Below are positions 4,031-35,860 of a stretch of DNA of 64,000 nucleotides, piece by piece. The notes beneath the pieces were generated by a model. The model did not search any database and had not been told where the DNA came from. It worked only from the letters and a program-made list of their open reading frames with translations. This DNA comes from Gallionella sp. (GTDB taxonomy: Bacteria; Pseudomonadota; Gammaproteobacteria; Burkholderiales; Gallionellaceae). How positions within the stretch are numbered: the first letter of the stretch is position 1; every line of letters starts with the position of its first letter. A program made the position numbers and the translations under genes. The stretch covers positions 40,578 to 104,577 of the forward strand of contig PLWV01000004.1 in NCBI GenBank assembly GCA_003153155.1, written 5' to 3'.

Positions 4031-4371
4031 GAAACCTCTAAAAATTCAGAGTTCGCCCAAATGCCCCACAAGGGGATGCCGATCCGCTACGGGCAAAAGC
4101 AGCCCGTGCGGAATCGTCAGCAAGGCGCGGAAAAGGGGTAAGCAGGCAAGCCGCGTAGCGGCTGCTCGCAAAAAATTTTAGTTCCGGCTAACCTAAAGGT
4201 TACCCTACACTGAAACTTCGTTTTGCCGCGCCGCATATGTTTGGATATGTAAGCAAGAAATTTTTTACGCAACGCAGCATAACCAGCGACTTGGCTGGCG
4301 TCTTTTGACAGCTTAGTCGAATGGCTAGTAGTTCATCAGTTGGGATGAAATGTGGATTTTTAGAGGTTCCC
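4031..4371. mobile_element. MITE copy A with terminal inverted repeats and 5-bp target duplication
   Basis: Non-coding element bounded by inverted repeats GAAACCTCTAAAAATTCA on the left and TGGATTTTTAGAGGTTCCC on the right. It is flanked by the direct repeat AATAG at 4026-4030 and 4372-4376, the expected target-site duplication. The interior matches copy B at 17954-18151. Compared with B it carries an extra block of about 85 bp and a clean 59-bp insertion of the palindromic element described at 4280. It fills most of the gap between the CNNM gene and pilC and encodes no credible protein, so it must rely on a transposase elsewhere. Confidence 0.8.
4280..4338 (-). repeat. palindromic element copy 1 (inside MITE copy A)
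   Basis: 59 bp running from TAACCAGCGACTTGGC to GGCTAGTAGTTCATCA on the plus strand. The inner part can fold as a hairpin with GACTT/TTAGTC arms and a GTC-TTTT-GAC tip. MITE copy B lacks exactly this segment: GCAACGCAGCA joins directly to GTTGGGATG there. That gives the empty-site structure and the element boundaries. Confidence 0.8.
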
Positions 4372-4467
4372 AATAGAAAACATGCCTTTACAAGAGGCAT
4401 AAAGCTCGGCATGATGCCCGCCAACATTAGCCCATAAACAATTAGTGAGTGACCCAAGGGAGGCACT

Positions 4468-5685
4468 ATGGCTGTCGCAGCAAAAGATCAAAAGACAAAA
4501 GATTTTACTTACGCTTGGGAAGGGAAGGACAAAACCGGCAAGCTGGTCAAAGGCGAGATGCGCGCGCCCGGCGAGGCCAGCGTGTCTGCTCATTTGCGGC
4601 GCCAAGGGGTCAATGTCACAAAAATAAAACGTCAGCGTAACAAGGGCAAGGCCATCACCGCCAAAGACATCACGCTGTTCACGCGCCAGCTTGCCGTCAT
4701 GATGAAAGCGGGCGTACCCCTGTTGCAAGCTTTCGACATCGTGGGCAAGGGGCATAGCAATCCCTCTGTAGCACGGCTGCTGCTGGACATCAAAACCGAC
4801 GTTGAAACCGGCAGCAGCCTGCAGCAGGCCTTCCTGAAATACCCGCTGTATTTCGACGCGTTGTATTGCAACCTGATCGGCGCGGGTGAGGCAGCGGGTA
4901 TTCTGGACGGCCTGTTGGAGCGCCTGGCGACCTACATGGAAAAAACCCAGGCTCTCAAGAGCAAAATCAAATCAGCGCTGTTCTACCCGATTTCCATCAT
5001 TGTAGTGGCGTTCCTCATTACCGCCGTGATCATGATTTTTGTGATCCCGGCGTTCAAAGAACTGTTCGAAGGCTTTGGTGCGAAGTTGCCTACTCCGACA
5101 TTGGTTCTCATGGGCATTTCCGATGTCTTCGTAAGCTATTGGTATCTGATTTTTGGCGGGATCGGTGGTGGCCTTTACGCCTTCTTCTATTTCTGGAAGC
5201 GCAGCAAAAAAATGCAGGACACCATGGACAAACTGTTGCTTAAACTGCCCATTTTCGGCGAGCTGATCCGCAAAGCCACTATCGCCCGCTGGACCCGTAC
5301 ACTTGCCACCATGTTCGCTGCCGGCGTGCCATTGGTCGAATCCCTTGATTCGGTTGCCGGTGCGGCGGGTAATGCGGTGTATTTCAATGCCACCAAAGTC
5401 ATTCAACGCGAAGTCAGCACCGGCAGCGGCCTGACCGTCGCCATGCAGAACACCGGGATATTCCCGAGCATGGTGTTGCAAATGTGTGCCATCGGTGAAG
5501 AGGCCGGCTCGCTGGACGCCATGCTCAGCAAAGTGGCCGACTTCTATGAAGCCGAAGTGGATGATGCGGTGGCAGCCATCTCCAGCCTGATGGAGCCGGT
5601 CATCATGGTGGTCCTCGGCACGCTGATCGGCGGCATGGTGATTGCGATGTATCTGCCGATATTCAAGATGGGCGAAGTCATTTAA
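4468..5685 (+). CDS. pilC: type IV pilus inner-membrane platform protein PilC
   Basis: 405 residues with two T2SSF domains (about 70-195 and 270-400), each followed by hydrophobic segments such as ALFYPISIIVVAFLITAV, and the C-terminal GGMVIAMYLPIFKMGEVI typical of the PilC/GspF family. PilC is the inner-membrane platform that couples the PilB and PilT ATPases to pilin assembly and retraction. The ATG at 4468 has a strong Shine-Dalgarno (GGGAGG) seven bases upstream. pilD follows after about 90 bp, but no pilB lies next to it in the window. Confidence 0.95.
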   Translation: MAVAAKDQKTKDFTYAWEGKDKTGKLVKGEMRAPGEASVSAHLRRQGVNVTKIKRQRNKGKAITAKDITLFTRQLAVMMKAGVPLLQAFDIVGKGHSNPSVARLLLDIKTDVETGSSLQQAFLKYPLYFDALYCNLIGAGEAAGILDGLLERLATYMEKTQALKSKIKSALFYPISIIVVAFLITAVIMIFVIPAFKELFEGFGAKLPTPTLVLMGISDVFVSYWYLIFGGIGGGLYAFFYFWKRSKKMQDTMDKLLLKLPIFGELIRKATIARWTRTLATMFAAGVPLVESLDSVAGAAGNAVYFNATKVIQREVSTGSGLTVAMQNTGIFPSMVLQMCAIGEEAGSLDAMLSKVADFYEAEVDDAVAAISSLMEPVIMVVLGTLIGGMVIAMYLPIFKMGEVI

Positions 5686-5772
5686 TGAAAAATCAGGCAA
5701 GAGGCGCAAGGTACAAGGTACAAAGTACAAATTCCCCTGCAGTCCTCAACCCCCGATCCTTGTTGCGACACT

Positions 5773-6693
5773 ATGAGTTTGCCGGAGCTACTGCAAACGA
5801 TCCCCGCCGAATTTGTTGGCGCATGCCTGAAATTGGGCCTGATGGTCGGCAGTTTTCTTAACGTGGTGATTCATCGTTTGCCGAAAATGATGGAACTTGG
5901 CTGGCAGCAACAATGCGCCGAACTGTCCCAAAGCGATGCCCAAAGTGACGTAGATCACAGCCAATCGCCTGCGAGTGCGGAGGGTGAACCTGCCCCACAC
6001 ACACCTTACAATCTCATCGTTCCACGCTCCGCCTGCCCGCATTGCAATCACGCTATCAGCGCGTGGGAAAACATCCCCATCGTCAGTTATCTGCTGTTAC
6101 GCGGCAAGTGCAAGGGCTGCGGTGCAGCCATTTCGCCCCGCTATCCGATCATCGAGGCGATCAGCGGCATTCTGTGCGCCTATGCGGCCTGGCACTTTGG
6201 TTTCGGGCTGGCCGCGGTCGGTGCACTGCTGCTCATCTGGGCATTGCTGGCTCTCACTGCAATCGACTTTGACACGCAATTGCTACCGGACGACATCACT
6301 CTGCCACTGCTCTGGGCGGGCTTGCTGCTCAACCTGTTCGGGGTCTTTACCAATTTGCCCAGCGCAGTGCTTGGTGCAGTAATCGGTTATCTCGCACTGT
6401 GGAGCGTGTACTGGCTGTTCAAGTTCACCACCGGCAAAGAAGGCATGGGCTACGGCGATTTCAAACTGCTTGCGGCCTTGGGTGCCTGGCTGGGCTGGCA
6501 AATGTTGCCGCTGATCATTTTGCTGTCCTCGCTGGTAGGCGCGGTGATCGGCATCACCTTGATAGTGGCACTCAAGCATGGTCGCAACATCCCCATCCCG
6601 TTTGGCCCTTATCTGGCGGGCGGAGGGCTGATCGCGCTGTTCTGGGGACAAACTCTGACACAAGGTTATCTGCAACTGCTTTCGGTCCCATGA
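5773..6693 (+). CDS. pilD: prepilin leader peptidase / N-methyltransferase PilD
   Basis: 306-residue polytopic membrane aspartic protease (family A24) that cleaves type IV prepilin leaders and methylates the new N-terminus. The cytoplasmic loop holds the zinc tetracysteine pair CPHC and CKGC (about residues 92-120), characteristic of bifunctional PilD enzymes. The two catalytic aspartates are seen in TAIDFDTQLLPDD and GYGDFKLLAALG. The loop before the first CxxC is longer than usual and low in complexity (about 48-75, rich in S, Q, D). It follows pilC in the same direction, consistent with a pilus operon. Confidence 0.95.
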   Translation: MSLPELLQTIPAEFVGACLKLGLMVGSFLNVVIHRLPKMMELGWQQQCAELSQSDAQSDVDHSQSPASAEGEPAPHTPYNLIVPRSACPHCNHAISAWENIPIVSYLLLRGKCKGCGAAISPRYPIIEAISGILCAYAAWHFGFGLAAVGALLLIWALLALTAIDFDTQLLPDDITLPLLWAGLLLNLFGVFTNLPSAVLGAVIGYLALWSVYWLFKFTTGKEGMGYGDFKLLAALGAWLGWQMLPLIILLSSLVGAVIGITLIVALKHGRNIPIPFGPYLAGGGLIALFWGQTLTQGYLQLLSVP

Positions 6694-6742
6694 TTCCAAT
6701 CCTATTTCATCGGTGAAACTGCGTTGGCTTCCTCGCTCACTC

Positions 6743-6816
6743 CTGATGAAACAACTGATATGACTACTAGCCATCTGACTAACCCAGCAAAAGACGCTGG
6801 GCAAGTCATTGGTTAT
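6743..6816 (+). repeat. palindromic element copy 2
   Basis: Runs from TGATGAAACAACT to CAAGTCATTGGTTAT. The central hairpin is GACTAA-CCCAGC, a short A-rich loop, then GCTGGG-CAAGTC. It lies in the pilD-coaE gap directly before copy 3. The 400-bp gap holds no credible gene, only these repeats. Confidence 0.75.
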
Positions 6817-6891
6817 AGCCATTCGACTAGGCTATCAGCCGAAGAGCTTTTGGCCGGGCACCCGAAAGACGATAGCCAAGTCGCTGGTTAT
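6815..6891 (+). repeat. palindromic element copy 3 (long form)
   Basis: Shares the GACTAGGC and GCCAAGTC arms, but the tip of the hairpin carries a 35-40 bp extension containing CCGAAGAGCTTTTGGCCGGG and CACCCGAAAGACGA. The stem just below the extension is GGCTA/TAGCC. The same extension occurs at 19901-19988 (stem GGCTG/CAGCC), in murE and in part in secA. Confidence 0.75.
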
Positions 6892-6904
6892 AGTCGTGCT
6901 AAAG

Positions 6905-6990
6905 ATACCCCCACCCTAACCCTCCCCCGCAGGGAGAGGGGACGATTGCTCCTTCCTCCTCCGGGGGAAGGTTGGGATGAGGGCGGCACT
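6905..6990. repeat. C/T-rich palindromic repeat
   Basis: Pyrimidine-rich inverted repeat (CCCTAACCCTCCCCC, GGGAGAGGGG, then CCTCCTCCGGGGGAAGG). A related sequence is fused to the palindromic element inside murC at about 26772-26825, so the two repeat types travel side by side at both sites. Confidence 0.55.
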
Positions 6991-7097
6991 GCCTGCGTCG
7001 TTCGCTTTGCGTCGCGGTCGATGCGAAGCATCGGGAACCGCACGGCATACCCCTTGCGGGTGCAGCCGCCTTGTTTGACCTTCGAAATAGGATTGGA

Positions 7098-7706
7098 ATG
7101 AGGCTCTGTATAGGGCTCACCGGTGGGATAGGCTGCGGCAAAAGCACGGTGGCCGGCTTGTTCGCGAAACATGGCGCAGGCATCATCGACACGGACACAA
7201 TCGCCCGCCGCCTGACGCAAGCCGGTGGCGAGGCCATTGCGGCGATTCGTGCGGCCTTTGGCGATGATTACATCACGGATGACGGTGCATTGAATCGCGC
7301 AAAAATGCGCGGGCTGATCTTTTCGGATGCGGCTGCCAAGCAACGGCTGGAACTGATTTTGCATCCCCTGATACTCGAACAGGCCAAGGTGCAACTCCGG
7401 CAATTGCAAACCAAACCTTACATCATCCTTGTCGTGCCGCTGTTAGCGGAAAGTCCGGCGTTCCGGCAACTGGCTCAGCGCGTTCTGGTGGTGGATTGCG
7501 ACGAAAATACCCAGGTTGCGCGCGTCATTGGACGCAGTCGAATGACCGAGGCAGAAGTACGCGGCATCATCGCACAGCAAACACCGCGTGCCGAACGGCT
7601 TCAACTGGCTGACGATGTCATACGCAATGATGCCGGTCTGGACAGCCTGGCAGAACAGGTTAGCGTTCTGCATGGACACTACTCGGACAGGCAAAACAAC
7701 GATTGA
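7098..7706 (+). CDS. coaE: dephospho-CoA kinase
   Basis: Phosphorylates dephospho-CoA on the 3'-OH of its ribose, the last step of coenzyme A synthesis. The P-loop GLTGGIGCGKSTVA sits at residues 5-18, followed by DTDTIAR and the lid-region motif HPLI. About 202 residues, normal for the family. I chose the ATG at 7098 rather than an earlier in-frame start because it has AGGATTGGA just upstream and aligns with the usual N-terminus. In many proteobacteria coaE sits with pilD and zapD, as here. Confidence 0.95.
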   Translation: MRLCIGLTGGIGCGKSTVAGLFAKHGAGIIDTDTIARRLTQAGGEAIAAIRAAFGDDYITDDGALNRAKMRGLIFSDAAAKQRLELILHPLILEQAKVQLRQLQTKPYIILVVPLLAESPAFRQLAQRVLVVDCDENTQVARVIGRSRMTEAEVRGIIAQQTPRAERLQLADDVIRNDAGLDSLAEQVSVLHGHYSDRQNND

Positions 7707-7775
7707 CGATATCAGGATATTCAATATATCGTTCGCAACTGACTTTCCTTCAACAGCACATCGGGCAATGACGGC

Positions 7776-8537
7776 GTGATCAGCTACGAGTTTCCTCTTA
7801 ATGAAAAGGTTCGCATCCTGTTGCGCCTTGAGGATTTGTTCGCGCGCATGACGCACTTCGCCGAACATGATCACAGCATGGATCACCACGCGGCACTGAT
7901 CACACTGTTTGAAATTCTTGAAGTCATCAGCCGTGCCGACTTGAAATCCGATTTACTGCAAGAACTGGAACGCCAGAAACGCGTGTTATCCAGCTTGCAC
8001 AACAACCCGGCGATTTCCGAACAGGCACTGGATGCGATTCTGATAGAGATTGAGCAGGCTTCCGGGTTTTTGCTTGCAATGAGCGGGAAGATCGGCCAGC
8101 ACCTGCGCGAGAATGAGTGGTTGATGGGCATCAAGCAACGCGCTGTCATGCCGGGCGGCACATGTCAGTTTGACCTGCCTTCCTATCACTACTGGCAAGA
8201 ACAGGATGTTCGCTCGAGGCGTGAAAATCTGCGCTCATGGCTGGCTCCGCTGTTACCTCTGCATACCGGTTTGAAAATCGTCCTGCGTCTGCTGCGCGAA
8301 AACGGCAAGGTCTTTCACTTCACTGCGCATCAAGGCACTTTCCAGCAAATGCAGGGCGGGCGTGTCGCGCAAATGCTGCGGGTCAGCATAAGCAGAGAAC
8401 TGCTGTGCATACCCGAGGTCGGGGCCAACAAGTACGCCATCAATATCCGCTTCATCGCCGCCAACTATGCGGCGAAATCTTCCCTGTTCGAACAGGATGT
8501 CCCTTTTAAACTGACCTTTTGCAGCATCCCTTCATAA
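7776..8537 (+). CDS. zapD: cell division protein ZapD
   Basis: 253-residue FtsZ-associated protein that bundles FtsZ filaments and supports Z-ring stability. The N-terminal [19 protein letters not shown] and the following alpha-helical half (to about 115) are typical; the C-terminal half is the beta-rich domain ([17 protein letters not shown]). Translation starts at a GTG at 7776. An upstream ATG at 7769 is out of frame and ends at once. The stop codon overlaps the yacG start (TAATG). Confidence 0.93.
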
Positions 8538-8734
8538 TGCAAAATAAAACAGCACCGATCGTAGCCTGTCCGCATTGCGGCAAAGAACATCAATGGGACA
8601 CCGGCAACCGCTTTCGCCCGTTTTGCAGCGAACGCTGCAAGCTGATCGATCTGGGAAAGTGGGCCAGTGAAGACTATCGTGTCGCACAGCCTCAAGACGA
8701 ACAAGAATTACTCCCTCCCGCTCACCAAGCCTGA
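8537..8734 (+). CDS. yacG: DNA gyrase inhibitor YacG (zinc-binding)
   Basis: 65 residues from the ATG at 8537, which overlaps the zapD stop. It has the four-cysteine zinc knuckle CPHCGKE...[16 protein letters not shown] that defines YacG. E. coli YacG binds GyrB and inhibits gyrase activity. The tail after DYRV is short and polar, as usual. It converges with the Nudix-ThiE gene, overlapping its 3' end by 13 bases. Confidence 0.93.
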
Positions 8735-9672
8735 CGCAGCAAACTGATTCCATGCCCACCATGCTGCCACGCGGTCTGCATGTCATCGTGCGTCAAACCA
8801 CCCAGCGCATACACCGGGATGGATGAACCTGCCACGATGGCCGCAAAGTTTTCCCAGCCCAGATGCGGTGCCCCCGGATGCGACTGCGTCGGCAACACCG
8901 GACTCAACAGCACGAAATCGCAACCCAATGCCTCGGCGCGTCGCAACTCCTCCGTGTTGTGACAAGAAGCCGCACACCATTCCACGGCGGGACGTTCACG
9001 CAACCCAGCAAGCTGTGTGCCGGTGAGCTGCACCCCGTCAGCGCCCACCTCCTGCGCCAGAGCGATGTCGGCATTGATGAGCAGGCGCGCATCGTGTTGG
9101 CGAATCAGCGACAACATTTTCAGTGCCAGCTCGCGCAACGCCTCGCGCGAATAATCCTTCTCGCGCAACTGCACCAGCCGCAAACCCTTCCGCAGCGCAG
9201 CTTCCAGCCGCCGCATGAATTCCTCCTCGCCCAGCTCTTGCACATTGCTGATGGCGTACAACGAAGGCAACTCCAGCGCACGCAAGATGGGAGCGTTGGC
9301 GGGCAGCATGGGCGTAACGGAAATATTCGGGGCGCGCTGCCAGGAAAACTCCTGCCCCTCATGCGGATGCAAATCGCCGCTCCACGCCGTCACGCGAAAA
9401 AAATTCAGCCGCACCGTCGCATGCGGATAAGTGAACACGCGGGTCACCCACGGGTAGGCGGTTGCAACTGTGATGCCCAACTCCTCGCGCAACTCGCGCA
9501 CCAGCGCATGGTAAGGAGTCTCACCGCGTTCGATTTTTCCGCCGGGGAATTCCCAATAGCCTGCCCAAATTTTGTCGGGGGGACGTTGGGCCAGGAGGAA
9601 GGAGCCGTCGGGGCGTTGGAGGACGGCGGCGGCGACTTCGACTGTTTTGGTTTGTGGGGAAGAATTACTCAA
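8722..9672 (-). CDS. Nudix hydrolase fused to ThiE-like TMP synthase domain
   Basis: 316 residues in two domains. Residues 1-135 are a MutT-type Nudix hydrolase with the Nudix box running from [18 protein letters not shown] into REELG, expected to hydrolyse oxidised nucleoside triphosphates such as 8-oxo-dGTP. Residues 145-316 are a TIM-barrel thiamine-phosphate-synthase-like domain ([42 protein letters not shown]). The fusion is known in betaproteobacteria. The C-terminal half keeps several ThiE motifs, but whether it makes thiamine phosphate is not shown by the sequence. The usual neighbour argJ lies about 3.7 kb away, beyond small accessory genes. Confidence 0.9.
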
Positions 9673-9721
9673 TGGAATTTCTCATGTGTAAGGTAAGCTA
9701 TGAGTTGCTCACCATACATGG

Positions 9722-9970: not shown

Positions 9971-9998
9971 AAAATTACCTCCAAGTGACAACCCTGCG

Positions 9999-10268: not shown

Positions 10269-10283
10269 TATGGTGACCTTAGC

Positions 10284-10775: not shown

Positions 10776-11311
10776 GCCGGGAGTAGCCCGGCAGCTAGTC
10801 ACTTTTCTTGTCTTGCCAAGAAAAGTAACCAAAAGAAATCGCCCCCGGTTTACCGCCCCTGCGGGGTACCCTCGATCAGCCGCAAGCAAGCGGGGCTGCG
10901 CAACTCGACCTGGTGGGGCGCACACCCCGCGCCCCACTGCGGGACTCAAACAGTGCTCGCCTAAACCTCCGCTCACTTGCGGCTGATTGAGGCGGCGCAC
11001 AGGGGAAAATCTCTACCCCCTCCCTAGCCCTCCCCCTGCAAGGGGGAGGGGATGGTTTTTGTTTTTGATTTTTGGTTTTCGCTCTTCATTCCCCTCATCC
11101 GCCACCGAGTAGCGGAGGCTGGTCAGGGAATTTCGGCGAGCACTGTTTGAGCACGTGGACGCGTAGCGGATCGTGCGAGTTGCGCAGCCGCCTGACCAGA
11201 CGAGCAACGCAGGGAACCCCTTGAGGGGTGGCGGATTGGGGTCGCCTTTTCTTTGGTTACTTTATTTTGGCGAAGCAAAAGAAAGTAACTAGCTGCCGGG
11301 CTACCCCCGGC
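10776..11311. mobile_element. 536-bp element with long inverted termini, non-coding
   Basis: The left end reads GCCGGGAGTAGCCCGGCAGC then TAGTCACTTTTCTTG, and the right end is its near reverse complement (AAAGTAACTAGCTGCCGGGC then TACCCCCGGC). The inverted arms are about 65 bp each and include a shared AAGTAACCAAA(A)GAAA segment. The interior contains the inverted pair CAGCCGCAAG/CTTGCGGCTG and a C-rich stretch (11020-11055). Short open frames inside follow the symmetry of the element and look non-coding. It looks like a non-autonomous transposable repeat. Confidence 0.65.
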
Positions 11312-15139: not shown

Positions 15140-17914
<2,775 letters not shown>

Positions 17915-17953
17915 ATTTTTCCAAACTACAAAATAATAAAGTTCTCGACTACA

Positions 17954-18151
17954 GGGGATATCTAAAAATTCAGAGCTCGCCCAAATGCCCCACAAGGGGA
18001 CGCCGATCCGCTACGGGCAAAAACAGCCCCGTGCGGAATCGTCAGCAAGGCGCGGAAAAAATTTTGCCGCGCCGCATATGGATGATATGTCAGCAAAAAA
18101 TTTTTTACGCAACGCAGCAGTTGGGATGAAATCAGGATTTTTAGAGGTCCC
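17954..18151. mobile_element. MITE copy B
   Basis: 198-bp non-coding element with ends GGGGATATCTAAAAATTCA and AGGATTTTTAGAGGTCCC in inverted orientation, flanked by the direct repeat CTACA (17949-17953 and 18152-18156). The interior matches copy A at 4031-4371 but lacks two of its insertions, including the 59-bp palindrome. It lies just upstream of secA, so it may affect the secA leader. Confidence 0.8.
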
Positions 18152-18159
18152 CTACAAAT

Positions 18160-18190
18160 AATAAAGGGTGAGGCGACCACCACCTCACCC
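18160..18190 (-). terminator. probable rho-independent terminator after the M23 peptidase gene
   Basis: On the minus strand GGGTGAGG and CCTCACCC form an 8-bp stem around a nine-base loop, followed by TTTATTATTT. The position, just downstream of the peptidase stop codon at 18216, fits. Confidence 0.65.
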
Positions 18191-19900: not shown

Positions 19901-19988
19901 TGATGAAACAACTAACCAACTGACTAGGCTGCCAGCCGAAGAACTTCTGGCTGGGCACCCGAAAGACGACAGCCAAGTCATTGGTTAT
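19901..19988 (+). repeat. palindromic element copy 4 (long form)
   Basis: Runs from TGATGAAACAACTAACCAAC to CAAGTCATTGGTTATG. Stem GACTAGGCTG/CAGCCAAGTC with the conserved tip CCGAAGAACTTCTGGCTGGG and CACCCGAAAGACGA. Compared with copy 3 the base pair closing the tip is changed on both sides (G-C instead of A-T). It fills most of the 180-bp gap downstream of lpxC. Confidence 0.75.
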
Positions 19989-23537: not shown

Positions 23538-24317
23538 TCAACCTTGTTTAGCCAATCCACTATTAACTAGCCCGCTCACCGCAAATCCGTTGCGGTAGCG
23601 CAAGTCCACGAATTTCACCTTGCTTTGTATTGCCGCAAGGCTATAGGGATAAACCTCCACGAATCTTGCCAGACGTTGCTGCATATCCTCACGCCCCAGT
23701 TCCAACACCATGCCGTTGCTTAAACGAAGTTGCCAGGCATGACGCGGCGACAAGGCAAGCTGGGTCACTTGCAAATCCAGTGCGGCAACCTGCTGGCTGA
23801 ATTGTGCGTAATGCTGCGCAACGTCAGCCGCCGCTCCGTCTTGTCCGGTAAAACGGGGTAACGCTTGCTCGCTGCCCCCGTAAAGGGGAGGCCGAGGTGT
23901 ACCCGACGCCTCCAGCATCACCCTCTCGCTCTTTGCTACAAAAACCTCGCCTTGCCGATTCACCAGCGCGTTGTTATTCCAGCGCGCCAACGCCTGATGC
24001 TCTTCCAGTCGCACCGCCAAACGCTGTGGAAATTCGCGGCGGATGCTGACGTTGCGCACCCAGGGTAATTTTTCCAACGATTGCCTCAAGCGTTCGATAT
24101 CCACGGTAAAAAAATTGCCATGCACTTCGTTGCGCACCACCTGCAACACCTCCGCTGCGTCAACCCGTTGCGGGGCAGCACTCAGGCGCACGCTGTGCAA
24201 CGGGAACAATCCCGGCAGATGCGCCGCGTAATAAGCAGCGCCATACAACACCGCGCATACACTGAAGACAAACAGCGCGTTGGCGATACTGCGCAGCAAT
24301 GGCACGTTATCCCACAT
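23538..24317 (-). CDS. ftsQ: cell division protein FtsQ
   Basis: 259 residues: a short cytoplasmic N-terminus, one membrane helix (about 12-32), a POTRA domain (about 40-110: [20 protein letters not shown]) and a beta domain. It joins FtsB and FtsL in the divisome. A proline- and glycine-rich stretch (about 130-155) is longer than usual and is encoded by a C/G-rich palindrome-like sequence near 23875-23920. The start overlaps the 3' end of ddl by 11 bases and has GGAG seven bases upstream. Confidence 0.93.
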
Positions 24318-25317
24318 GAGCCAACTCCAAAATACGCAGCACCAGTTGCTCGAAACTCATTTCTGCCTGACGCGCCGCCATCGGCACCAGGCTGTGGTCG
24401 GTCATCCCCGGCGAGGTGTTCGCTTCCAGCAAATATAGTTTGTCCGCCTCATCCTTCAAAAAATCCACACGCCCCCAACCTTGCCCGCCGATCAGCGTAA
24501 ACGCTTGTTTGGCCAAGCGCTGCATTCCGGCCTCCTGCTCGGCACTCAGATCACTCGGGCACAAATAGCGGGTATCGTTGCGCAAGTATTTCGCCTCGTA
24601 GTCGTAGAACTCATTGGCCGGCTCGATCTTGATCACCGGCAACGCCTGATCGCCCAGAAGCGCAACGGTATATTCGCCGCCGCCGATAAAACTTTCCGCG
24701 AGCACCAGCGGGTCGTGCCTGGCGGCTTCACGATATGCAGCCGGTAACTCGCTCACCGCTTTTACCTTGCTGATGCCCACACTGGAGCCTTCGTTGGCGG
24801 GTTTTACAAACAGCGGCAAGCCCAGCTGCTTTGCAACAGCCTTCCAATCACTGTGTTCATCGAGCAGCGCGTAGTCCGGTATCGGCAACCCGCCCGCCTG
24901 CCACACCAGCTTGGTGCGCCACTTGTCCATGCCCAATGCCGAAGCCATCACCCCGCTGCCGGTATAGGGGATCCCCAGCAATTCCAGCGCGCCCTGCACC
25001 GTGCCGTCTTCGCCGAAGCGTCCGTGCAGCGCGATGAAAATACGGTCAAAACCGTCATCAACCAGCGCCTGCAAATTCTGCACGGCAGGATCAAACGCAT
25101 GGGCATCCACACCACTGCGCAACAGTGCCGCCAGCACCGCCGCGCCGCTTTTCAGCGACACCTCGCGCTCGGCGGAACGCCCGCCAAACAACACCGCCAC
25201 TTTGCCGAATGAGACAGGATTGTGGATTGAGGATTGATAACCAGCGACTTGGCTGGCGTTGTTTGCCAGGCTAGTCGATTGGCTAGTAGTCCCATCAGGA
25301 TTGAGACGCGGGTTCAT
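24307..25317 (-). CDS. ddl: D-alanine--D-alanine ligase with repeat-derived N-terminus
   Basis: 336 residues. An ATP-grasp enzyme making D-Ala-D-Ala for the peptidoglycan stem. Core motifs are [44 protein letters not shown] and [16 protein letters not shown]. The first 36 residues are not part of the family: they include [20 protein letters not shown], encoded by a copy of the palindromic element at 25238-25297. The ATG at 25317 overlaps the murB stop as ATGA, like most junctions in the cluster, so it is probably the true start and the element entered just behind it. No other ATG lies before the catalytic core. Confidence 0.95.
25238..25297 (-). repeat. palindromic element copy 5, in frame in ddl
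   Basis: On the plus strand it runs from TAACCAGCGACTTGGCTGGC to GGCTAGTAGTCCCATCA, nearly identical to the copy at 4280-4338. On the coding strand it reads as about 20 extra residues following the ddl start codon. Confidence 0.8.
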
Positions 25318-26309
25318 AGTTTTTTTTCACCAACAATGCGTACTTCCGGATGCAACTTGATGCCGGTCTGTTGCTGCACCACCGCCTGCACTTCATTAAT
25401 CAAATTCTCGATATCCGCCGCGGTCGCAGCACCGGCATTCACGATAAAGTTGGCATGTTTCTCCGACACCTGCGCGCCGCCGATCTGCCTGCCTTTCAAA
25501 CCGCACTGCTCGATCAACCTCGCCGCATGGTCACCCTGGGGGTTGCGAAACACCGAACCGGCATTCGGCAGATTCAACGGCTGCGTGGCGATGCGCTTGC
25601 TCAGCAAGGCCTTGATTCCCTGACGCGCCGATTCACCGTCGCCCTTGGGAAATTGCAGCCATGCGGCGATGAACCATTCATTCTGGTGAAGGGTGAAGGG
25701 TGAAGGGTGAAGGGTGTCACCGCGCCCAAGGTTTTCCCCCTGCTCCCTTCCCCCTTTTCCCTTCTCTCTTAAAACCACGTGCCGATACCCGATTTCATAA
25801 TCGGCTGCCGTGCGCACCCGCACTTCACCGTGCCGGTTTACGGTCTGCACGCGCAGCACTTTTTCCCAGGTTTCACTGCCGTAACAACCGGCGTTCATCG
25901 CCAGCATGCCGCCCAGCGTGCCGGGAATGCCGGCAAAAAATTCTGCACCTTGCAAATTGTGCAGTGCGGCGAAGCGCGCCAACTTGGCACCGGATACACC
26001 TGCCTCGCAATAAACGCTGCCGTCATCTTCCAGACGCAATGCACTCAATGTTCCATGCAGCATCAACACCGTGCCGTGCAATCCGCCGTCGCGCACCAGC
26101 AGATTGCTGCCCAAGCCCACCGCATACAGCGGCTCATCAGCCGGCAAGCTGCGCAAGTACACCAGCAGATCATCCAGATCGGCGGGCTGATACATCCGCT
26201 CAGCCGTACCGCCTGCGTGCCAGCTGGTGTGCTTGCTCATATCAACCTGACGGCGCAACGTGCCGCGCAATGCTGAGTTAACAAAATGTTGTGGCTCAGT
26301 CATATTCAT
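25314..26309 (-). CDS. murB: UDP-N-acetylenolpyruvoylglucosamine reductase
   Basis: 331 residues. FAD enzyme that reduces the enolpyruvyl group to make UDP-MurNAc. Motifs: the FAD-binding [15 protein letters not shown], the catalytic-region GYR in DYEIGYRHV, the active-site Ser in [19 protein letters not shown] and the terminal HPEVRIVGE. About 20 residues after VVLREKG (rich in G, E, R, then [12 protein letters not shown]) come from a run of GTGAAGG repeats and are absent from usual family members. The start at 26309 overlaps the murC stop as ATGA. Confidence 0.95.
25682..25775. repeat. GTGAAGG tandem repeat plus C/T-rich tract inside murB
   Basis: Four consecutive GGTGAAG units (plus strand 25685-25715) are followed by a tract CCCCCTGCTCCCTTCCCCC, then TTTTCCC. 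The insert is a multiple of three in effect and adds about 20-25 residues to MurB in a surface loop. Confidence 0.6.
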
Positions 26310-27877
26310 GACTCACCCAAGCGCTGCGCCGGCATGGATGGCATTTTCCCGGTAGCATCAGCGTCGCTTTTTCCCAGTAATTTATTCGGCGTACTGCCGA
26401 TCGAACCCGCGCCCATGGTGATGACCACATCACCGTCGCGCGCCATTTGCATGATCGCTTGCGGCATTAGCTGTATATCCTCGACAAACACCGCTTCGCT
26501 CTGTCCCGCCACACGCAAGGCATGCATCAGCGCGCGCCCGTCTGCCCCGACGATGGGCGGCTCACCCGCCGCATACACTTCCGCCAATACCAGCGCGTCC
26601 ACGCTGCATAGCACCTTCACAAAATCCTCGAACAAGTCGCGTGTGCGCGTGTAGCGATGCGGCTGAAATGCCAACAGCAAACGCTGGCCGGGAAACGCGC
26701 CGCGCACCGCCTCCAGCGTGGCGACCATTTCCACCGGATGATGCCCATAGTCGTCGATTAAAGTAAAACTTCCTCTCCCGCTGGCGGAAGAGGAAACGAT
26801 TGCCCCCTCTCCCTCCTGCGGGAGATAACCAGCGACTTGCCCGCTTGCGGGCTTAGTCGAATGGCTAGTTGTTCCATCAGGGTTGGGGAGAGGGTGCTCC
26901 GGCAAGGCTATTTCACCGTAACGCTGGAAGCGTCTGCCGACACCCTGAAATTCCGCCAGTGCCGCAACAATCGCGCCATCCGCCACGCCGACTTCCAGCG
27001 CGATGGCGATTGCGGCGAGAGAGTTCAACACGTTGTGCATTCCCGCCAGATTCAGTGTGATTTCCAGATCCTTGGGGATTCCGTTCTGGCGGCATTGCGC
27101 GGTGAAGCGCATCTGGCCGCCCTGATGGCGCACATTCACGGCGCGGATTTGCGCGCCCTCGCTGAAGCCGTAAGTCGTCACCGGCTTGCTGATGCGCGGC
27201 AGAATTTCACGCACGTTCGCATCGTCTATGCATAGCATCGCCATTCCATAGAACGGCAGATGCTCGACGAAATCCACGAACGCCTGCTTGAGCCGCGCAA
27301 AATCGTGCCCGTAGGTTTCCATATGGTCTGCATCGATGTTGGTGATCACCGCGAGTATCGGTTGCAAATACAGGAACGAGGCATCCGACTCGTCGGCCTC
27401 GACTACGATGAATTCGCCCGTGCCGAGTTTGGCGTTGCTGCCGCTGCTGTTCAGTTTGCCGCCGATCACAAAAGTGGGATCGAAACCACCCTTGGCCAAT
27501 ACACTGGAGGTCAGCGAAGTCGTGGTGGTTTTGCCGTGCGTGCCCGCCACCGCAATACCCTGGCGCAAGCGCATCAACTCGGCCAGCATCATGGCGCGCG
27601 GCACCACCGGAATGTGCCGGGCACGCGCCGCCAGCACTTCGGGGTTGTCCTTGCCCACCGCAGTCGAGACCACCACCACATCGGCATTGGTCAGATTCTG
27701 CTCGGCATGGCCGAGATACACCGTTGCCCCCAGTTGTTTGAGGTGTCGCGTTGCGACGCTTTTACCAAGATCGGAGCCGCTCACTTGAAAACCCAGATTC
27801 AGCAGCACCTCGGCGATGCCGCTCATGCCGGAACCGCCGATGCCAACGAAGTGCAAGTGTTTGACTTTGTGTTTCAT
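26306..27877 (-). CDS. murC: UDP-N-acetylmuramate--L-alanine ligase with in-frame repeat insert
   Basis: 523 residues, longer than the usual 460-490. It adds L-Ala to UDP-MurNAc. The N-terminal [21 protein letters not shown]-loop [22 protein letters not shown] and [10 protein letters not shown] are all present. Between the central and C-terminal domains there are about 45 extra residues, containing [20 protein letters not shown] and a glycine/serine stretch, encoded by a palindromic element joined to a C/T-rich repeat. The insert sits just before DDYGHHP, at the hinge of the last domain. Start and stop both overlap neighbours as ATGA. Confidence 0.96.
26772..26895 (-). repeat. composite repeat in murC: palindromic element copy 6 plus C/T-rich palindrome
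   Basis: The palindromic element occupies about 26826-26879 (TAACCAGCGACTTGCCCGC ... GGCTAGTTGTTCCATCA), with a perfect GCCCGC/GCGGGC stem separated by TT. Next to it, 26772-26825 contains CTCTCCCGCTGGCGGAAGAG and CCCTCTCCCTCCTGCGGGAG. The same pair of repeat types occurs at 6743-6990. Confidence 0.75.
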
Positions 27878-30110: not shown

Positions 30111-31480
30111 GCGCCCTCCTTTTCCAACTCTTGCACCGCTTGCACGAATACTTCAGCGCGATGTTCATAGTTGCGGAACATATCGAAGCTGGCGCAGGCC
30201 GGCGACAACAGCACTGCATCACCGCTTTGCGCCAGACGGGTTGCTTGATGCACGGCATCACTCATATCTTCGGCGCGCGCCACCTTCACACCACAACCAT
30301 TCAGGGCAGCCGCGATCAGCGGCGCGTCGCGTCCGATCAGCACCACCGCGCGCGCATGTTGCGCCACTGCCGGATTGAGCGGCGCGAAATCCTGTCCTTT
30401 GCCCTCGCCTCCCGCGATCAATACTGCCTTGCGTCCCAACCCTTGCAGCGCGGCAACAGTCGCGCCGACATTGGTACCCTTGGAATCGTCGTAATAAGTG
30501 ATGCCATCCATTTCTGCCACACGCTCGACACGGTGCGGCAGCCCCTTGAAACTGCGCAGCGCATCAAGCAATGTGTGCATCGGAATATCTATCGCGCGGC
30601 ACAGCGCCAACGCGGCCAATGCATTCGCCACGTTATGCAATCCGGCCACTTGCAACTCGCTGGCTTTGAGCAAACGCCGCGTGCCTTGCATCAACCAGAT
30701 TTTCCCATCAGCGCGCTCTATCCCAAAATCAGTTTCAGTGCCGGGCATATTCAAACCGAACGTGATGGTTTTGCATTCCGCGCGCGTCATGCTCATGCAG
30801 CGCGCATCGTCGCGGTTCAGTACTTGTATACTGCATCCAGCAAAAATACGCGCCTTGGCGGCGCTGTATTCAGCCATGTCGGCATAACGATCGAGATGGT
30901 CTTCGCTGATATTCAGCACGGTCGCGGCATCGGCATTCAGACTGGACGTGGTTTCCAGCTGGAAGCTGGACAGTTCCAGCACCCATACCTCGGGCTGGTT
31001 TGCGCCACGCTCCAGCACGACATCCAGTACCGCCGGAGAAATGTTGCCGGCCGCCACTGCGTCCTTGCCCGCCGCCTTGCACAGGTGCTCCACCATGCTG
31101 GTGACGGTGGTCTTGCCGTTAGCCCCGGTGATCGCGAGGATGCGCGGACGATTATCTTTCGGCAGCGATTGCGCGAACAATTCGATGTCGCCCACCACTG
31201 CAACGCCGCGTGCGATTGCCCGTTCCACTGCCGGATCGCGCAACGGCACTCCCGGACTGATCGCGATCAGCTCGATGCCGTCAAACAGCGCGTCGTTAAA
31301 ATTTCCGCAAAAGGTCTGTTTGGCAGCAACATACAGGGCAGCCTGAGCCAAACCGGGTGGCGCGCTGCGGCTGTCCGCCACGCGCAGGCGCGCGCTCTGC
31401 GCGCTGAGCCAGCGCACCATGGACAGCCCGGTCTCGCCGAGACCAAGTACCAGTACCTTTTTGTCAGACCATCTTTGCAA
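30098..31480 (-). CDS. murD: UDP-N-acetylmuramoylalanine--D-glutamate ligase
   Basis: 460 residues. It adds D-Glu to UDP-MurNAc-L-Ala. The N-terminal [18 protein letters not shown]-loop [28 protein letters not shown] and C-terminal [27 protein letters not shown] are all clear. No insert is visible. A repeat-rich gap of about 130 bp separates it from mraY. Confidence 0.97.
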
Positions 31481-31499
31481 TTGTTTTCCTTAAATCAGT

Positions 31500-31608
31500 T
31501 GTGAGACATAAAACCTAAGACGTAAGACTTAAGTTGTTAGCAAAACCGCCCCCAACTTCCTACTTACGTCTTCCTACTTACGTCTCCCCACTTACGTCTT
31601 CCAACTCG
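31500..31608. repeat. tandem ACTTACGTCT repeats between mraY and murD
   Basis: Three direct units of about 15 bp (CTTACGTCTTCCTA, CTTACGTCTCCCCA, CTTACGTCTTCCAA) lie at 31560-31607, with an inverted GACGTAAGACTTAAG near 31518-31533. They could form alternative hairpins in the mRNA between murD and mraY. It is the only gap of any size inside the cluster apart from the mraZ-rsmH one. Confidence 0.55.
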
Positions 31609-31611
31609 CAT

Positions 31612-32697
31612 CTACCTCAACTTCAACGTCGCCAAACCCAGCAACACCAACAACATCGTGATGATCCAGAAGCGCACCACCACCTGAGTTTCTTTCCAGC
31701 CCTTCAACTCGTAGTGATGGTGTAACGGAGCCATGCGGAACACGCGCTTGCCAGTCAGCTTGAACGAGGCCACCTGGATCATTACCGAGACCGCCTCAAC
31801 CACGAACACGCCGCCCATGATGAACAACACCAACTCCTGACGCACGATCACCGCCACTGTGCCGAGTGCCGCACCGAGTGCCAGCGCGCCGACATCGCCC
31901 ATGAACACTTCGGCGGGATAGGCGTTGAACCACAGGAAGGCTAGGCCGGCTCCGGCAATCGCACCGCAGAACACCGCCAACTCACCCGCGCCTGGGATGT
32001 AGGGAATGCCGAGATATTTCGAGAACACCGCGTTGCCCGCCACGTAGGCGAATATCGCCAGTGCGCCGCTCACCATCACCGTCGGCATGATGGCCAGGCC
32101 ATCCAGACCATCGGTCAAATTCACCGCATTGCTGGTGCCAACAATCACCAAATAGGTCAGCGTAATGAAAATTACTGCCGAGACCGGAAACACCAGCAGC
32201 TTGAAAAACGGCACGATGAGTTCGGTATGCGCGGGCAGGCTGGCGGCGTTCCACAAATAGGCTCCAACCAGCAGCGCAATGATGGATTGCCAACCTATCT
32301 TGGCTTTGGCAGACAGGCCCTTGGGATTGTGATGCACCACCTTGCGGTAATCATCCACCCAGCCGATGACACCGAAGCCCAAGGTGGTAAGCAGCACCAC
32401 CCACACGTAATGGTTGTGCAAATCGCCCCACAGCAAGGTGGTGATCGCGATCGAAGTAAGGATCAACGCGCCGCCCATAGTCGGCGTGCCGGCTTTTACC
32501 AGATGCGTTTGCGGCCCGTCGCTGCGGATCGACTGGCCGATTTTGTACGCAGCCAATTTGCGTATCATCGTCGGACCGACCAGAAACGAGATGAACAATG
32601 CCGTCATCGCCGCCAGCACGGTGCGCAACGTGATGTAATTGAACACGCTGAAAAACCTTACGTCTTGAGCCAGCCATTGCGCGAGTGCTAAGAGCAT
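31612..32697 (-). CDS. mraY: phospho-N-acetylmuramoyl-pentapeptide transferase
   Basis: 361 residues, ten membrane helices. It transfers phospho-MurNAc-pentapeptide to undecaprenyl phosphate, forming lipid I. Signature stretches: [28 protein letters not shown] (DD motif), [29 protein letters not shown] and the C-terminal [17 protein letters not shown] histidine motif. The start overlaps murF by 10 bases. Confidence 0.98.
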
Positions 32698-34100
32698 GAT
32701 TTCTCCTGTAGTTGGGGTAATTCATGAATTGCCCCAACTTCCAATAATTGCACCACGCGTTCCATTTTCATAAATCGCGAACCCTTCACCAGCACCGTGG
32801 TGTTCGCGTCCAATTCTTTTTCCAGCGCGGGCAACAACTCCTCGATACGCTCGAAATGCCGCGCACCGCTGCCGAATTCGCGCACCGCATTGCCGCTCAA
32901 TGCGCCCAACGTGTAAAGTTTTTCGATGCCGGCACGGCGCGCTTCACTACCGATCTCGGCATGAAATGTCGCGGCGTCATCGCCCAGCTCCCCCATGTCG
33001 CCCAGCACCAGCACGCGTGTGCCCTTGGCTTGTGTCAGCACACTGATCGCGGCGCGCAACGAAGCCGGATTAGCGTTGTAGGTATCATCTATCAGGGTGG
33101 CGCCATGCTGCGCGACCTTGCGCTGCAAGCGTCCGGCTACGCCGCTGAATTTTTCCAAACCGGCTACGACTTTTTCCAGCGGCACGTTTAGCGCGATCGC
33201 CGCAGCCGTGGCGGCCAGTGCGTTGCGGGCGTTGTGTGCACCGGGAACTTTCAGCACAGTTGTGAAATTCCCCTGTGGAGTTCGCACATCAAGCTGCAAA
33301 CCAAAATCGTGCGGCTGCCACGTGCCGCACACATCAGCTTGCGGATCCAGGCCAAATTCGAGCAATTGGTGTGCGCCCGCGAGTGCACGCCACAATGGCG
33401 CATTTGCGTCATCAGCGTTGATCACCGCAGTGCCATGATGCTGCAGCCCGGCAAGGATCTCACCCTTGGCTTGTGCGACCGCTTGCACCGAACCCAGCCC
33501 TTCCAGATGCGCGCCACTGGCGTTGTTGATCAGCGCGACATCGGGTACGGCAATACGCGTCAGGTAATCGATCTCGCCCAAGTGATTCATGCCCATTTCG
33601 ATCACGGCATAACGGTGCGTTGCATTCAGTTGCAACAGTGTGAGCGGCATACCGATGTCGTTGTTTAAATTACCCTGAGTTGCGAGCACTGCGTCTGCAC
33701 TCCCTGCCGCCTCGCGCAGAATGCCGGCGAGCATTTCCTTCACCGTGGTCTTGCCATTGCTGCCGGTAATCGCCACCAGTGGAATAGCGAACTGCCTGCG
33801 CCACCACCCGGCCAACCGCCCCAACGCCAGACGCGTATCTTCTACAATCAGGAGCGAGGATTTGGGATCAAGGATTGAGCTGCGCGCCTCATAGCTGTCT
33901 GCGTTGACCATCGAAGCTATGGCTCCGGCCTGTGTAGCGGTTGCGACAAAGTCGTAGCCGTCGAAATGCTCGCCGCGCAACGCAACGAACAAACCACCTT
34001 GCGCAATTTTGCGGCTGTCGCTGGATACCGCATTGAAACGCACATCGGCCCCGACCAGCTTTCCCCCGGTTGCCTGCGCGGCTTGCGACAGCAGCATCAT
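32688..34100 (-). CDS. murF: UDP-MurNAc-tripeptide--D-Ala-D-Ala ligase
   Basis: 470 residues. It adds D-Ala-D-Ala (made by Ddl, same cluster) to the UDP-MurNAc-tripeptide. P-loop [18 protein letters not shown], then [31 protein letters not shown] and [15 protein letters not shown]. The length is only slightly above normal. Start overlaps the murE stop as ATGA. Confidence 0.97.
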
Positions 34101-35860
34101 GCGCGCGCCTCCGAATGATGTGTCTGCAAAGCCTGCCGCACTACCAGCACATCGTTGAACGGATGCTTTACGCCGTTAATCTCCTGATAATCTTCGTGTC
34201 CCTTGCCCGCGATCAGCACGGTATCGTTTTGCCGCGCATGTCTGATGGCACTTTGAATTGCGGCAGCGCGGTCTACTATGATCTCGTGGTTGTCTTCATT
34301 CATGCCGCTGACAATTTCCGCGATTATTTCGCGCGGATTTTCGCCGCGCGGATTGTCGGAAGTCACGATGCAAAAATCGGAAAATTTCTCCGCGACCATG
34401 CCCATCATGGCGCGTTTGCCCCGGTCCCGATCTCCGCCGCAGCCGAATACGCAAATTAATTTTCCGCCTGTTGCCACCCTGAGCGTTTCATTAGACCCAA
34501 GAATGACTTCGCGCAATGCCTGCAGCACTTTTTCCAGCGCGTCCGGTGTGTGCGCGTAATCCACGATCACCGTCGGCTGCTGCACGCTGCCCAGGCGCTG
34601 CATGCGTCCGGCGACCGGCTGCGCCCTGCTCAGTGAGTGTGCCGCGTCGCTCAACGCCACCCCGCTCACCAGCAATACCGCCAGCGCACCCAAAAGATTC
34701 GCCGCGTTGAATCGCCCGACCAGCGGGCTATTCAACTCCACCGCTCCCCAACTGGAATGCACACCCAGCCGCAATCCCTGCCCGGTCATTTCCAGCAAAT
34801 TGCCATAGACCATGCGCAGACCCAGCCGCTCGGCGAGTTGCAGTGCTGCATCACTCAAGCCGTAACCAATTACTTCCGCATCTGTATCCTGCTGCGGGAG
34901 GGTGGTGGCAGAGCCGCCGGGCATCCACCGGCGTCCTTCTTGCAGGGACAATTGCTCAGCCAGCTCCACGCCATATGCATCGTCGAGATTCAGCACCACA
35001 AAGCCAAGCTGTTGCCAATCAAACAGCTTGCGTTTGGTATCCGCGTAGCGTTGCATATCACCGTGATAATCGAGATGATCGCGGCTCAAATTGGTGAGCA
35101 TCGCCACATCAAAACGCACAGCATTCACGCGCCCCTGAGACAGCGCATGCGAGGACACTTCCATCGCTACAGCTTGCGCGCCATCACGCAAATAGTCAGC
35201 CAGCAAGCCATGCACGCGAATGGCATCCGGCGTAGTGTTGGCACTGGCTTGCAGCGCATCGACGAAGCCGTTGCCCAGTGTGCCGATCAGTGCGCATTGC
35301 TTTCCCGCCTCGTTCAAAGCGTGAGCGATCCAGTGACTGGTTGAAGTCTTGCCATTGGTTCCGGTGATGCCAACCACCCACAGTTTTTCCGAGGGTGTGC
35401 CATACACTGCATCGGCCAGCCATCCCGCCTTGTGGCACAAATTGGCCACAGCGAGATTGGGCACTTGCCAGGCATCGTTCCAGACAAAATGCTGTGCCTC
35501 CCACGGGTGCCCGGACATAACCAGCGACTTAGCGGGCGTTAACCAGCGGCTTATGTCACCGTCTTTCGGGTGCCCGGCCAAAAGTTCTTCGGCTGGTGAC
35601 TTAGCCGAATGGCTATGTAACGCTGTTTGCTCGCTTAGTCGAATGGCTAGTGGTTTCATCAAAAGCTTTTCGTAAATCACCGCATTCGCACCCTGCGCGA
35701 TCGCTGGCGCGATGAACTGCCGGCCATCAGTCTTTTCACCGGGATAGGCGACGAAAGTATCGCCGCGCTGAATGGAACGACTGTCCGTCACCAGACGTGT
35801 GATCGGCACTTTTAAAGCAGCCACTTGATCGAGAGCCCACTGATGGAGAGAAGGACTCAC
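34097..35860 (-). CDS. murE: UDP-MurNAc-tripeptide synthetase with large in-frame repeat insert
   Basis: 587 residues against about 490-510 for the family. P-loop ITGTNGKTSTSHWIAHAL. The substrate loop SDNPRGENP marks a meso-diaminopimelate ligase. After the first domain motif NAVIYE there are about 50 extra residues, including LLMKPLAIRLSEQTALHSHS and SPAEELLAGHPKDGDISRWL, encoded by a nested pair of palindromic elements at 35518-35661. The conserved FVWNDAW follows directly, so the insert sits in a loop of the N-terminal domain. The frame is open throughout and the gene is joined to ftsI and murF by ATGA overlaps, so it is probably functional. Confidence 0.96.
   Translation of the reverse strand: MSPSLHQWALDQVAALKVPITRLVTDSRSIQRGDTFVAYPGEKTDGRQFIAPAIAQGANAVIYEKLLMKPLAIRLSEQTALHSHSAKSPAEELLAGHPKDGDISRWLTPAKSLVMSGHPWEAQHFVWNDAWQVPNLAVANLCHKAGWLADAVYGTPSEKLWVVGITGTNGKTSTSHWIAHALNEAGKQCALIGTLGNGFVDALQASANTTPDAIRVHGLLADYLRDGAQAVAMEVSSHALSQGRVNAVRFDVAMLTNLSRDHLDYHGDMQRYADTKRKLFDWQQLGFVVLNLDDAYGVELAEQLSLQEGRRWMPGGSATTLPQQDTDAEVIGYGLSDAALQLAERLGLRMVYGNLLEMTGQGLRLGVHSSWGAVELNSPLVGRFNAANLLGALAVLLVSGVALSDAAHSLSRAQPVAGRMQRLGSVQQPTVIVDYAHTPDALEKVLQALREVILGSNETLRVATGGKLICVFGCGGDRDRGKRAMMGMVAEKFSDFCIVTSDNPRGENPREIIAEIVSGMNEDNHEIIVDRAAAIQSAIRHARQNDTVLIAGKGHEDYQEINGVKHPFNDVLVVRQALQTHHSEARA
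35518..35661 (-). repeat. nested palindromic elements (copy 7) in frame in murE
   Basis: Plus strand: an outer element begins TAACCAGCGACTTAGCGGGC and ends CGCTTAGTCGAATGGCTAGT then GGTTTCATCA. Inside it sits a second, long-form element (TAACCAGCGGCTTATGTCAC ... TTCGGCTGGTGACTTAGCCG) with tip GTCTTTCGGGTGCCCGGCCA. The inner stem pairs GTCAC with GTGAC. Total length 144 bp, divisible by three. Confidence 0.75.

What the first reader, a model, noticed from the sequence alone, without database searches (positions are those of the whole stretch)
4280..35661. A palindromic repeat family that invades essential cell-wall genes in frame
At least seven copies of one element family occur in the window (4280, 6743, 6815, 19901, 25238, 26826, 35518), plus a fragment in secA. 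Three lie inside essential genes (ddl, murC, murE) without breaking the frame. The others are intergenic. The arms (GACTTGGC/GGCTTAGTC-like) and flanks (AACCAGCGACTT, GGCTAGT) are conserved. This resembles the protein-invading palindromic elements of Rickettsia; I know of no description in betaproteobacteria.
Basis: partly seen in the sequence, partly recalled or inferred. Interest (0 to 1): 0.85.

Follow-up and report, generated by a model that had tools for sequence, protein, structure and literature searches.

The report
Nesting hairpin elements inside essential genes
A short hairpin-shaped DNA element has spread through an iron-oxidising bacterial genus and repeatedly lands inside protein genes, including essential cell-wall genes, adding whole numbers of amino acids, usually by landing inside older repeats that had already entered the gene.

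Summary
The element ("element I") is 61 bp: an imperfect 17-bp hairpin plus a 12-nt tail. The window's genome holds at least 161 covariance-model matches. 35 of 37 genus genomes searched carry it; named carriers are mostly Gallionellaceae/Nitrosomonadales bins. Stem changes are compensatory: 9 of 17 pairs change on both sides.

It is mobile. The window itself holds an empty site, and most relatives lack the murC and murE inserts. I saw no target duplication; the usual copy adds 60 nt (20 codons). In this genome 24 coding sequences carry a copy in an open frame. In an independent named set 22 of 22 in-gene copies keep frame. I assign 18 of the 24 to older repeats, including a 27-nt repeat ("II") that has itself entered secA in frame. 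At murC, living relatives show the steps: empty, G-rich repeat, element I, second element inside the first.

The moving enzyme is unknown; Y1 transposases could not be linked. It resembles Rickettsia palindromic elements and REPs. In-ORF REPs are in print for Thauera, so this is a new variant of a known kind.

The parts
4279..4338 (+). Element I, intergenic copy (60 nt) inserted in a dispersed repeat of about 300 bp
   Evidence: counterpart of the same repeat without the element at 17953-18166 in this window
17953..18166 (+). Second copy of the ~300-bp repeat, without element I: empty site inside the window (it also lacks a separate stretch of about 84 nt further upstream)
   Evidence: alignment shows a clean 59-nt difference at the element, no target duplication
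6744..6891 (-). Compound intergenic copy: outer element I with repeat II in its loop, and a second element I (6756-6816) nested at the outer copy's CT|A site
19901..19988 (-). Element I with repeat II in its loop (88 nt), intergenic
25237..25297 (+). Element I in the N-terminal leader of ddl (ORF 24307-25317, - strand), frame open
26825..26879 (+). Element I, 55-nt form, in frame inside murC (ORF 26306-27877, -), itself inside a G-rich repeat
   Evidence: the insert falls between blocks that are about 3 residues apart in a solved MurC chain
35517..35661 (+). Element I in frame inside murE (ORF 34097-35860, -), inside repeat II (GGGTGCCCGGAC / AAAGCTTTTCG flanks)
35540..35623 (+). 84-nt related element with a different right end (GGCTATGTAACGC), nested in the loop of the murE copy and carrying repeat II
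   Evidence: bounds deduced by comparison with the undivided loop of L016
15305..15331 (-). Repeat II, 27 nt / 9 codons (AEALLAGHP), in frame in the secA C-terminal linker (ORF 15140-17995, -)
   Evidence: present in own genome and G018, absent in the other 28 of 30 loci aligned

Best explanation
Element I is a non-autonomous mobile DNA hairpin of about 61 bp. SHOWN: it inserts as a unit without target duplication at the sites compared, after a pyrimidine-T step. Its stem is kept by compensatory change. Its usual net length (60 or 54 nt) is a multiple of three, and its sequence is open in three of six frames. Copies in genes are therefore read as 18-20 extra residues, and nearly all in-gene copies found are in an open frame. 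It lands preferentially in other dispersed repeats, including itself. Repeats already sitting in tolerant protein loops thus act as landing pads, and the protein segment grows in codon-multiple steps. INFERRED: transposition of single-stranded hairpin DNA by an enzyme supplied in trans (IS200/IS605-like geometry, recalled: hairpin, 12-nt arm, CT-type target, no duplication); and purifying selection, not a frame-sensing mechanism, as the cause of frame keeping. The enzyme is not identified.
For: Hairpin: 97.7% of cells paired, 9 of 17 pairs with double changes, 0 of 500 shuffles as high on either. Copy number and range. Empty sites: in the window; murC, L301 versus own, +54 nt at the junction; murE, L268 versus own, near-exact. 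Stepwise series at murC in 30 loci: 18 empty, 7 with the G-rich repeat alone, 1 with another insert (L292), 4 with element I (own, L288, L294, L295), of which L295 has a second element nested in it. In-gene copies: 23 ORFs with both flanks coding, named (coaBC, polA, mutS, purL, hemD, birA, pdxA, prmA, ribE, uvrD, murC, murE and others), plus ddl. Independent named set: 132 testable copies, 22 in genes, 22 of 22 open. Landing in repeats: 99 of 152 reconstructed sites match other DNA on hand versus 114 of 600 control sites, p = 5e-27. Target base: C 0.85 or T 0.13 before the T (134 sites).
Against: No enzyme found. No autonomous copy or widely split pair of ends in the 1.68 Mb on hand. In the first scoring of the own genome, which did not require an open frame, 5 of 23 in-gene candidates were closed or shifted; I looked further only at L005, which reads as a gene end (sequence), and left the other four unresolved. 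The two scorings differ: 17 of the 18 open candidates recur among the 23, one (L219 at 2522) does not. The hairpin preference of the target is weak: overall folding energy does not differ from controls (p = 0.41), pairs spanning the junction are fewer (p = 0.0012), and only the 3' side has more pairs (4.07 versus 3.03, p = 0.0004). Copies inside repeat II are somewhat alike (0.846 within; 2 of 1000 permutations as high), so some may have moved as a II+I compound. No expression data.
Confidence: 0.8

Rival explanations
1. Element I is a true REP moved by a RAYT (Y1 TnpA-REP) transposase of the host.
For: Y1_Tnp matches in 35 of 41 genus genomes; hairpin with an internal G/A mismatch and a GTNG motif next to the stem; CT-type target and no target duplication.
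Against: No copy in the loci of the 3 own Y1 genes; of 32 Y1 loci (93 kb) only L341 and L338 hold one, about what copy density gives (the comparison is my estimate). G022 (83% complete) has 90 matches and no Y1 match; G023 and G036 have Y1 but no copies; Spearman 0.29, p = 0.08 over 37 genomes, with copy numbers capped near 90. The GTNG lies on the 3' side of the stem.
Confidence: 0.25
2. Copies spread mainly by recombination or gene conversion between older repeats (II, III, IV), so that compounds such as II+I are copied into existing repeats, rather than by transposition.
For: 18 of 24 in-gene copies lie in older repeats by my reading of the flanks. Copies in repeat II share a tail form (TTCCATCA in 10 of 12) and are alike.
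Against: Three in-gene copies (UDG, comEC, PD40 genes) have no matching repeat at the site (0 hits). Self-nesting at one exact site, and insertion into an unrelated ~300-bp repeat and into the middle of a terminator-like hairpin (L183), are hard to get by copying between homologous repeats.
Confidence: 0.25
3. The in-gene sequences are ordinary lineage-specific protein loops that resemble the repeat by chance or by common codon bias.
For: Only that the inserts lie at variable places in the proteins.
Against: DNA-level identity to intergenic copies including the stem pairing; empty sites in orthologues; three different reading frames used.
Confidence: 0.02

Closest known systems
Rickettsia palindromic elements (RPE)
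   Same: Palindromic, many copies, in frame inside protein genes; translated as an extra segment (PMC10969869, passages seen; PMC3733652 section 15).
   Different: About 60 nt here versus ~150 bp in PMC10969869; free-living iron oxidisers (lifestyle recalled); nesting and entry through older repeats; no sequence comparison with RPEs was made.
GTAG/CGTC REP super-families and their RAYTs
   Same: Short conserved hairpins, some with G/A mismatches, arrays, in-ORF copies including in Thauera, with DNA-repair genes among the hosts (PMC3733652, section 15 and passages). Here polA, mutS, uvrD and a UDG-family gene carry copies.
   Different: Longer (61 bp), GTNG on the 3' side only, no RAYT found flanked by copies, a fixed unit inserted with a 12-nt tail.
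Enterobacterial RU-1/RU-2/RU-3 and other MITEs with ORFs
   Same: Small mobile sequences whose open frames are maintained in genes (PMC2759123, abstract and section list seen).
   Different: RUs are 103-168 bp; element I has no inverted repeats at its very ends (a 12-nt tail lies outside the stem) and no target duplication at the sites compared.
IS200/IS605-type single-strand transposition (recalled)
   Same: Subterminal hairpin, no target duplication, insertion 3' of a short target.
   Different: No Y1 enzyme could be linked; one hairpin only.

Membership tests
Rickettsia palindromic elements | Palindromic repeat present in genes, in frame, and between genes | tested here: met
Rickettsia palindromic elements | Insert absent from orthologues | tested here: met
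   murC: 26 of 30 loci lack element I; murE: 27 of 30 lack it, the carriers being own, L256 and, cut by a contig end, L261
Rickettsia palindromic elements | Length ~150 bp as given for RPEs in PMC10969869 | tested here: not met
   main forms 61 and 55 nt
Rickettsia palindromic elements | Sequence homology to a named RPE family | not tested
   no RPE sequence was fetched; the name is used for resemblance only
GTAG/CGTC REP with RAYT | GTAG or CGTC at the 5' end of the hairpin (the 5' position is recalled) | tested here: not met
   alignment A1: columns 2-7 read TAACCA in all 33 rows; GTNG only on the 3' side
GTAG/CGTC REP with RAYT | Y1 transposase gene flanked by copies | tested here: not met
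   32 Y1 loci examined, 2 hold a copy somewhere within the locus
MITE | Target site duplication | tested here: not met
   one shared base at most at two exact and one near-exact empty site
MITE | Larger autonomous element with the same ends | tested here: inconclusive
   none in 1.68 Mb of DNA on hand, which is not a whole-genome search
IS200/IS605-type element | Subterminal hairpin, no duplication, short target | tested here: met
IS200/IS605-type element | Moved by a Y1 TnpA | tested here: inconclusive
   no physical link; weak correlation
Rfam RNA families | Gathering-score match | tested here: not met
   one match in the window, RNase P at 40681-41032, not at the element

The most novel reading that the evidence does not exclude
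A guild of unrelated small palindromic repeats (27-nt II, 61-nt I with an 84-nt relative, G-rich III) uses each other as landing sites inside loops of essential proteins, so that protein segments grow by nested, codon-multiple insertions. It is driven by a hairpin-mobilising enzyme that is neither a RAYT nor any known MITE transposase.
Probability: 0.25. Interest if true: 0.85.

Novelty: new variant of a known kind. Interest (0 to 1): 0.7.

Why it matters
Protein-invading palindromes are known best from Rickettsia, an intracellular genus with reduced genomes (recalled). A free-living genus with dozens of sequenced species, some lacking and some carrying each insert, gives before-and-after pairs in essential enzymes. 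How such inserts are tolerated, and what moves the hairpin, thus become directly testable. It is also a caution for annotation: extra loops in these proteins are mobile DNA.

Tried and rejected
A RAYT origin: Y1_Tnp searched in own genome and 41 genus genomes, R1 run over 32 Y1 loci; no link. Upstream of the L031 Y1 gene an ATAACCAGCG and a CTTCATCA stand 59 nt apart end to end, but with no matching hairpin and no R1 match, so I did not count it.

An autonomous parent with the same ends: 26 lone left ends and 4 lone right ends in 1.68 Mb looked degenerate, nested, cut or chance-like.

A vector: no match in plasmids or phages; one viral contig, L434, matches, not read.

A guide-like link between the variable tail and the target: some mutual information, but shared descent is not excluded and the leading pairs change when repeat II and self-nested sites are dropped; not claimed.

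The first pair count used a mistyped structure and is void; one search replaces it. The idea that target sites are strong hairpins was dropped.

Rows dropped: alignment A1 holds 33 of the 36 copies (left out: two 55-nt forms and the window's 60-nt copy); 152 outermost unique copies kept from 199 raw; 45 of 152 sites touching element I left out; 14 of 146 named copies too near a contig end; in the control hits of 99.5% identity or more were dropped as self-matches, which was not done for the sites, and both could match orthologous loci of relatives. Repeat II in genes: 7 of the 30 loci fetched (of 122 matches) pass the coding test, 5 of them in the EELLAGHP frame; secA and murE fell under the cut-off of 2 with 0.9 and 1.6.
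Full report
WHAT IS THERE. The window (contig C9 of a 2.75-Mb genome) holds six places with a repeat whose usual form is 61 bp and which I call element I. Its consensus is an imperfect hairpin (columns 2-49: 17 pairs, a 7-nt loop, an asymmetric internal loop) followed by a 12-nt tail. In 33 full-length copies from this genome, 97.7% of cells pair and 9 of 17 pairs have changes on both sides. None of 500 shuffles reaches the paired cells, the double changes or the covariation score, and the slid controls are far lower. In the internal loop G and A appear to swap together (by eye).

HOW MANY AND WHERE. The covariance model R1 gives 161 matches at E <= 0.01 in this genome with 150 of 1467 candidates scored. 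Of 37 genus genomes searched 35 have matches, against 0 of 24 genomes from 24 other genera (stricter filters). In a wider draw, 22 of 300 genomes of the order and 12 of 134 genera have matches at E <= 1e-6.

IT MOVES. The window contains its own control: a dispersed repeat of about 300 bp occurs at 4030-4385 with the element and at 17953-18166 without it; the difference at that point is a clean 59 nt (the second copy also lacks about 84 nt elsewhere). In murC, relative L301 has ...CCCAACCCT|CTCCCGC... where the window's genome has the 55-nt form, a net gain of 54 nt. In murE the orthologues run from VIWEAQHF (empty), through VIYEKLLSGHPLEAQHF (repeat II alone, e.g. L268), to repeat II split by element I (own, L256, and L261 at a contig end), and in the own genome split again by an 84-nt relative. 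At these sites one base at most is shared, so I see no target duplication.

NESTED GROWTH IN MURC. Of 30 aligned loci 18 are empty; 7 carry only the G-rich repeat, read as LPNPLPQAGEGANV or similar; one (L292) has another insert; own, L288 and L294 have element I inside the G-rich repeat; L295 has a second element inside the first. In the closest solved MurC chain (9s8i) the site corresponds to about three residues between two aligned blocks (chain 331 to 335, query 324 to 369).

GENES AND FRAMES. I parsed 152 outermost copies in the stretches fetched. With a coding model trained on this genome's stretches, 23 copies lie in ORFs with coding sequence on both sides, with a gap to the next score (5.0 versus 2.6). 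Pfam domains point to coaBC, an RNB exonuclease, purL, rlmM, a PD40 protein, an AMP-binding enzyme, hemD, mutS, a DUF3025 protein, a GAF/HD protein, polA, a UDG-family gene, comEC, a PP2C-like protein, prmA, ribE, an amidase, uvrD, an ABC-F protein, birA, pdxA, murC and murE (the gene names are my reading of the domains). ddl makes 24, but there the copy lies in a variable leader. That scan required an open frame. The earlier scan that did not require it found 23 candidates: 18 open, 1 in phase with a stop, 4 shifted; 17 of those 18 recur. The independent named set (115 loci, 832 kb, 146 copies) had 132 testable copies, 22 in genes, all 22 open and in phase (p = 2e-7 if half of insertions were open). 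All three open frames are used. Copies elsewhere are also mostly open in those frames (0.76, 0.90, 0.71 of 86), so openness is built into the sequence. Selection against closed insertions is then enough to explain frame keeping; I see no need for frame sensing. Only about 24 of 152 copies are in genes, far fewer than a random spread would put there (inference).

LANDING PADS. From the flanks I assign 18 of the 24 in-gene copies to older repeats: 7 in repeat II, 7 in G-rich repeats (PP2C by eye), 3 in a CCTGAGC..GTCGAAGG repeat, 1 in element I itself (hemD). Of the other six (ddl, pdxA, purL, UDG, comEC, PD40), UDG, comEC and PD40 match nothing else on hand. Over all 152 sites, 99 match other DNA on hand across the junction, against 114 of 600 random pyrimidine-T sites. 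Repeat II is itself a genome-wide 27-nt repeat (122 matches with up to 2 mismatches against 1 for the reversed pattern) and an in-frame invader: secA carries it in the own genome and G018 but not in the other 28 of 30 loci aligned.

HOW IT MIGHT MOVE. Read on the strand that begins TGATG, the site is pyrimidine-T, then a 12-nt arm, the hairpin, and GGTTAT. That is the layout of single-strand IS200/IS605-type ends (recalled). But I found no Y1 gene flanked by copies among 32 loci. A genome with 90 matches, 83% complete, shows no Y1 gene, and the correlation over 37 genomes is weak. I found no autonomous parent in the DNA on hand and no plasmid or phage carrier. So the mobility is shown, the enzyme is not.

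WHAT IS KNOWN. REPs inside ORFs, including in Thauera, and RPEs in Rickettsia are in print (PMC3733652, section 15 and passages; PMC10969869, passages); RU elements in enterobacterial genes too (PMC2759123, abstract and section list). Searches pairing Gallionella, Gallionellaceae or Sideroxydans with palindromic repeats, REPs, repetitive elements or MITEs listed no paper that looked like a description of this family; general searches on in-frame palindromes did not either. The library lacks most subscription journals, and I judged these by the listings, except the papers named above. I therefore call it a new variant of a known kind; what is unusual is the entry through older repeats, the nesting, and the living series of steps in essential enzymes.

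LIMITS. The genomes used are mostly drafts or metagenome bins, though many independent ones agree. The fold preference of the target is weak. Some II+I copies may have moved together. No protein has been seen.

Noticed in passing
window 4030-4385 and 17953-18166: A dispersed repeat of about 300 bp that carries element I at the same point in at least six places of the genome (rows 0, 59, 64, 68, 83, 140).
   Followed up: partly
window 15305-15331 and 122 genome matches: Repeat II, a 27-nt in-frame repeat read as (A/S)E(E/K)LL(A/S)GHP, may be an independent mobile unit of only nine codons.
   Followed up: partly
L183, around its element I copy: Element I sits in the middle of a terminator-like hairpin (AAAAAAGCACGCC|T|AGGCGTGCTTTTCTTTT, row 63).
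   Followed up: no
window 1-1408: Direct repeats of about 174 nt (families D1-D3) in what looks like a repeat-containing protein gene.
   Followed up: no
window 31556-31611: 14-nt tandem units CTTCCTACTTACGT (D11).
   Followed up: no
window 10776-11311, 48804-54207, 56180-57415: Other inverted-repeat families (GCCGGG..CTAGTCACTTTTCTTG; ATCGCGGGCATGGCCCGCTCCTACA; CGTCATTCCCGCG); the first and third resemble sites where element I sits elsewhere (rows 46, 24, 49).
   Followed up: partly
window 40681-41032 (-): RNase P RNA, class A.
   Followed up: no
L434 5596-5621: One viral-collection contig carries the element's right end.
   Followed up: no
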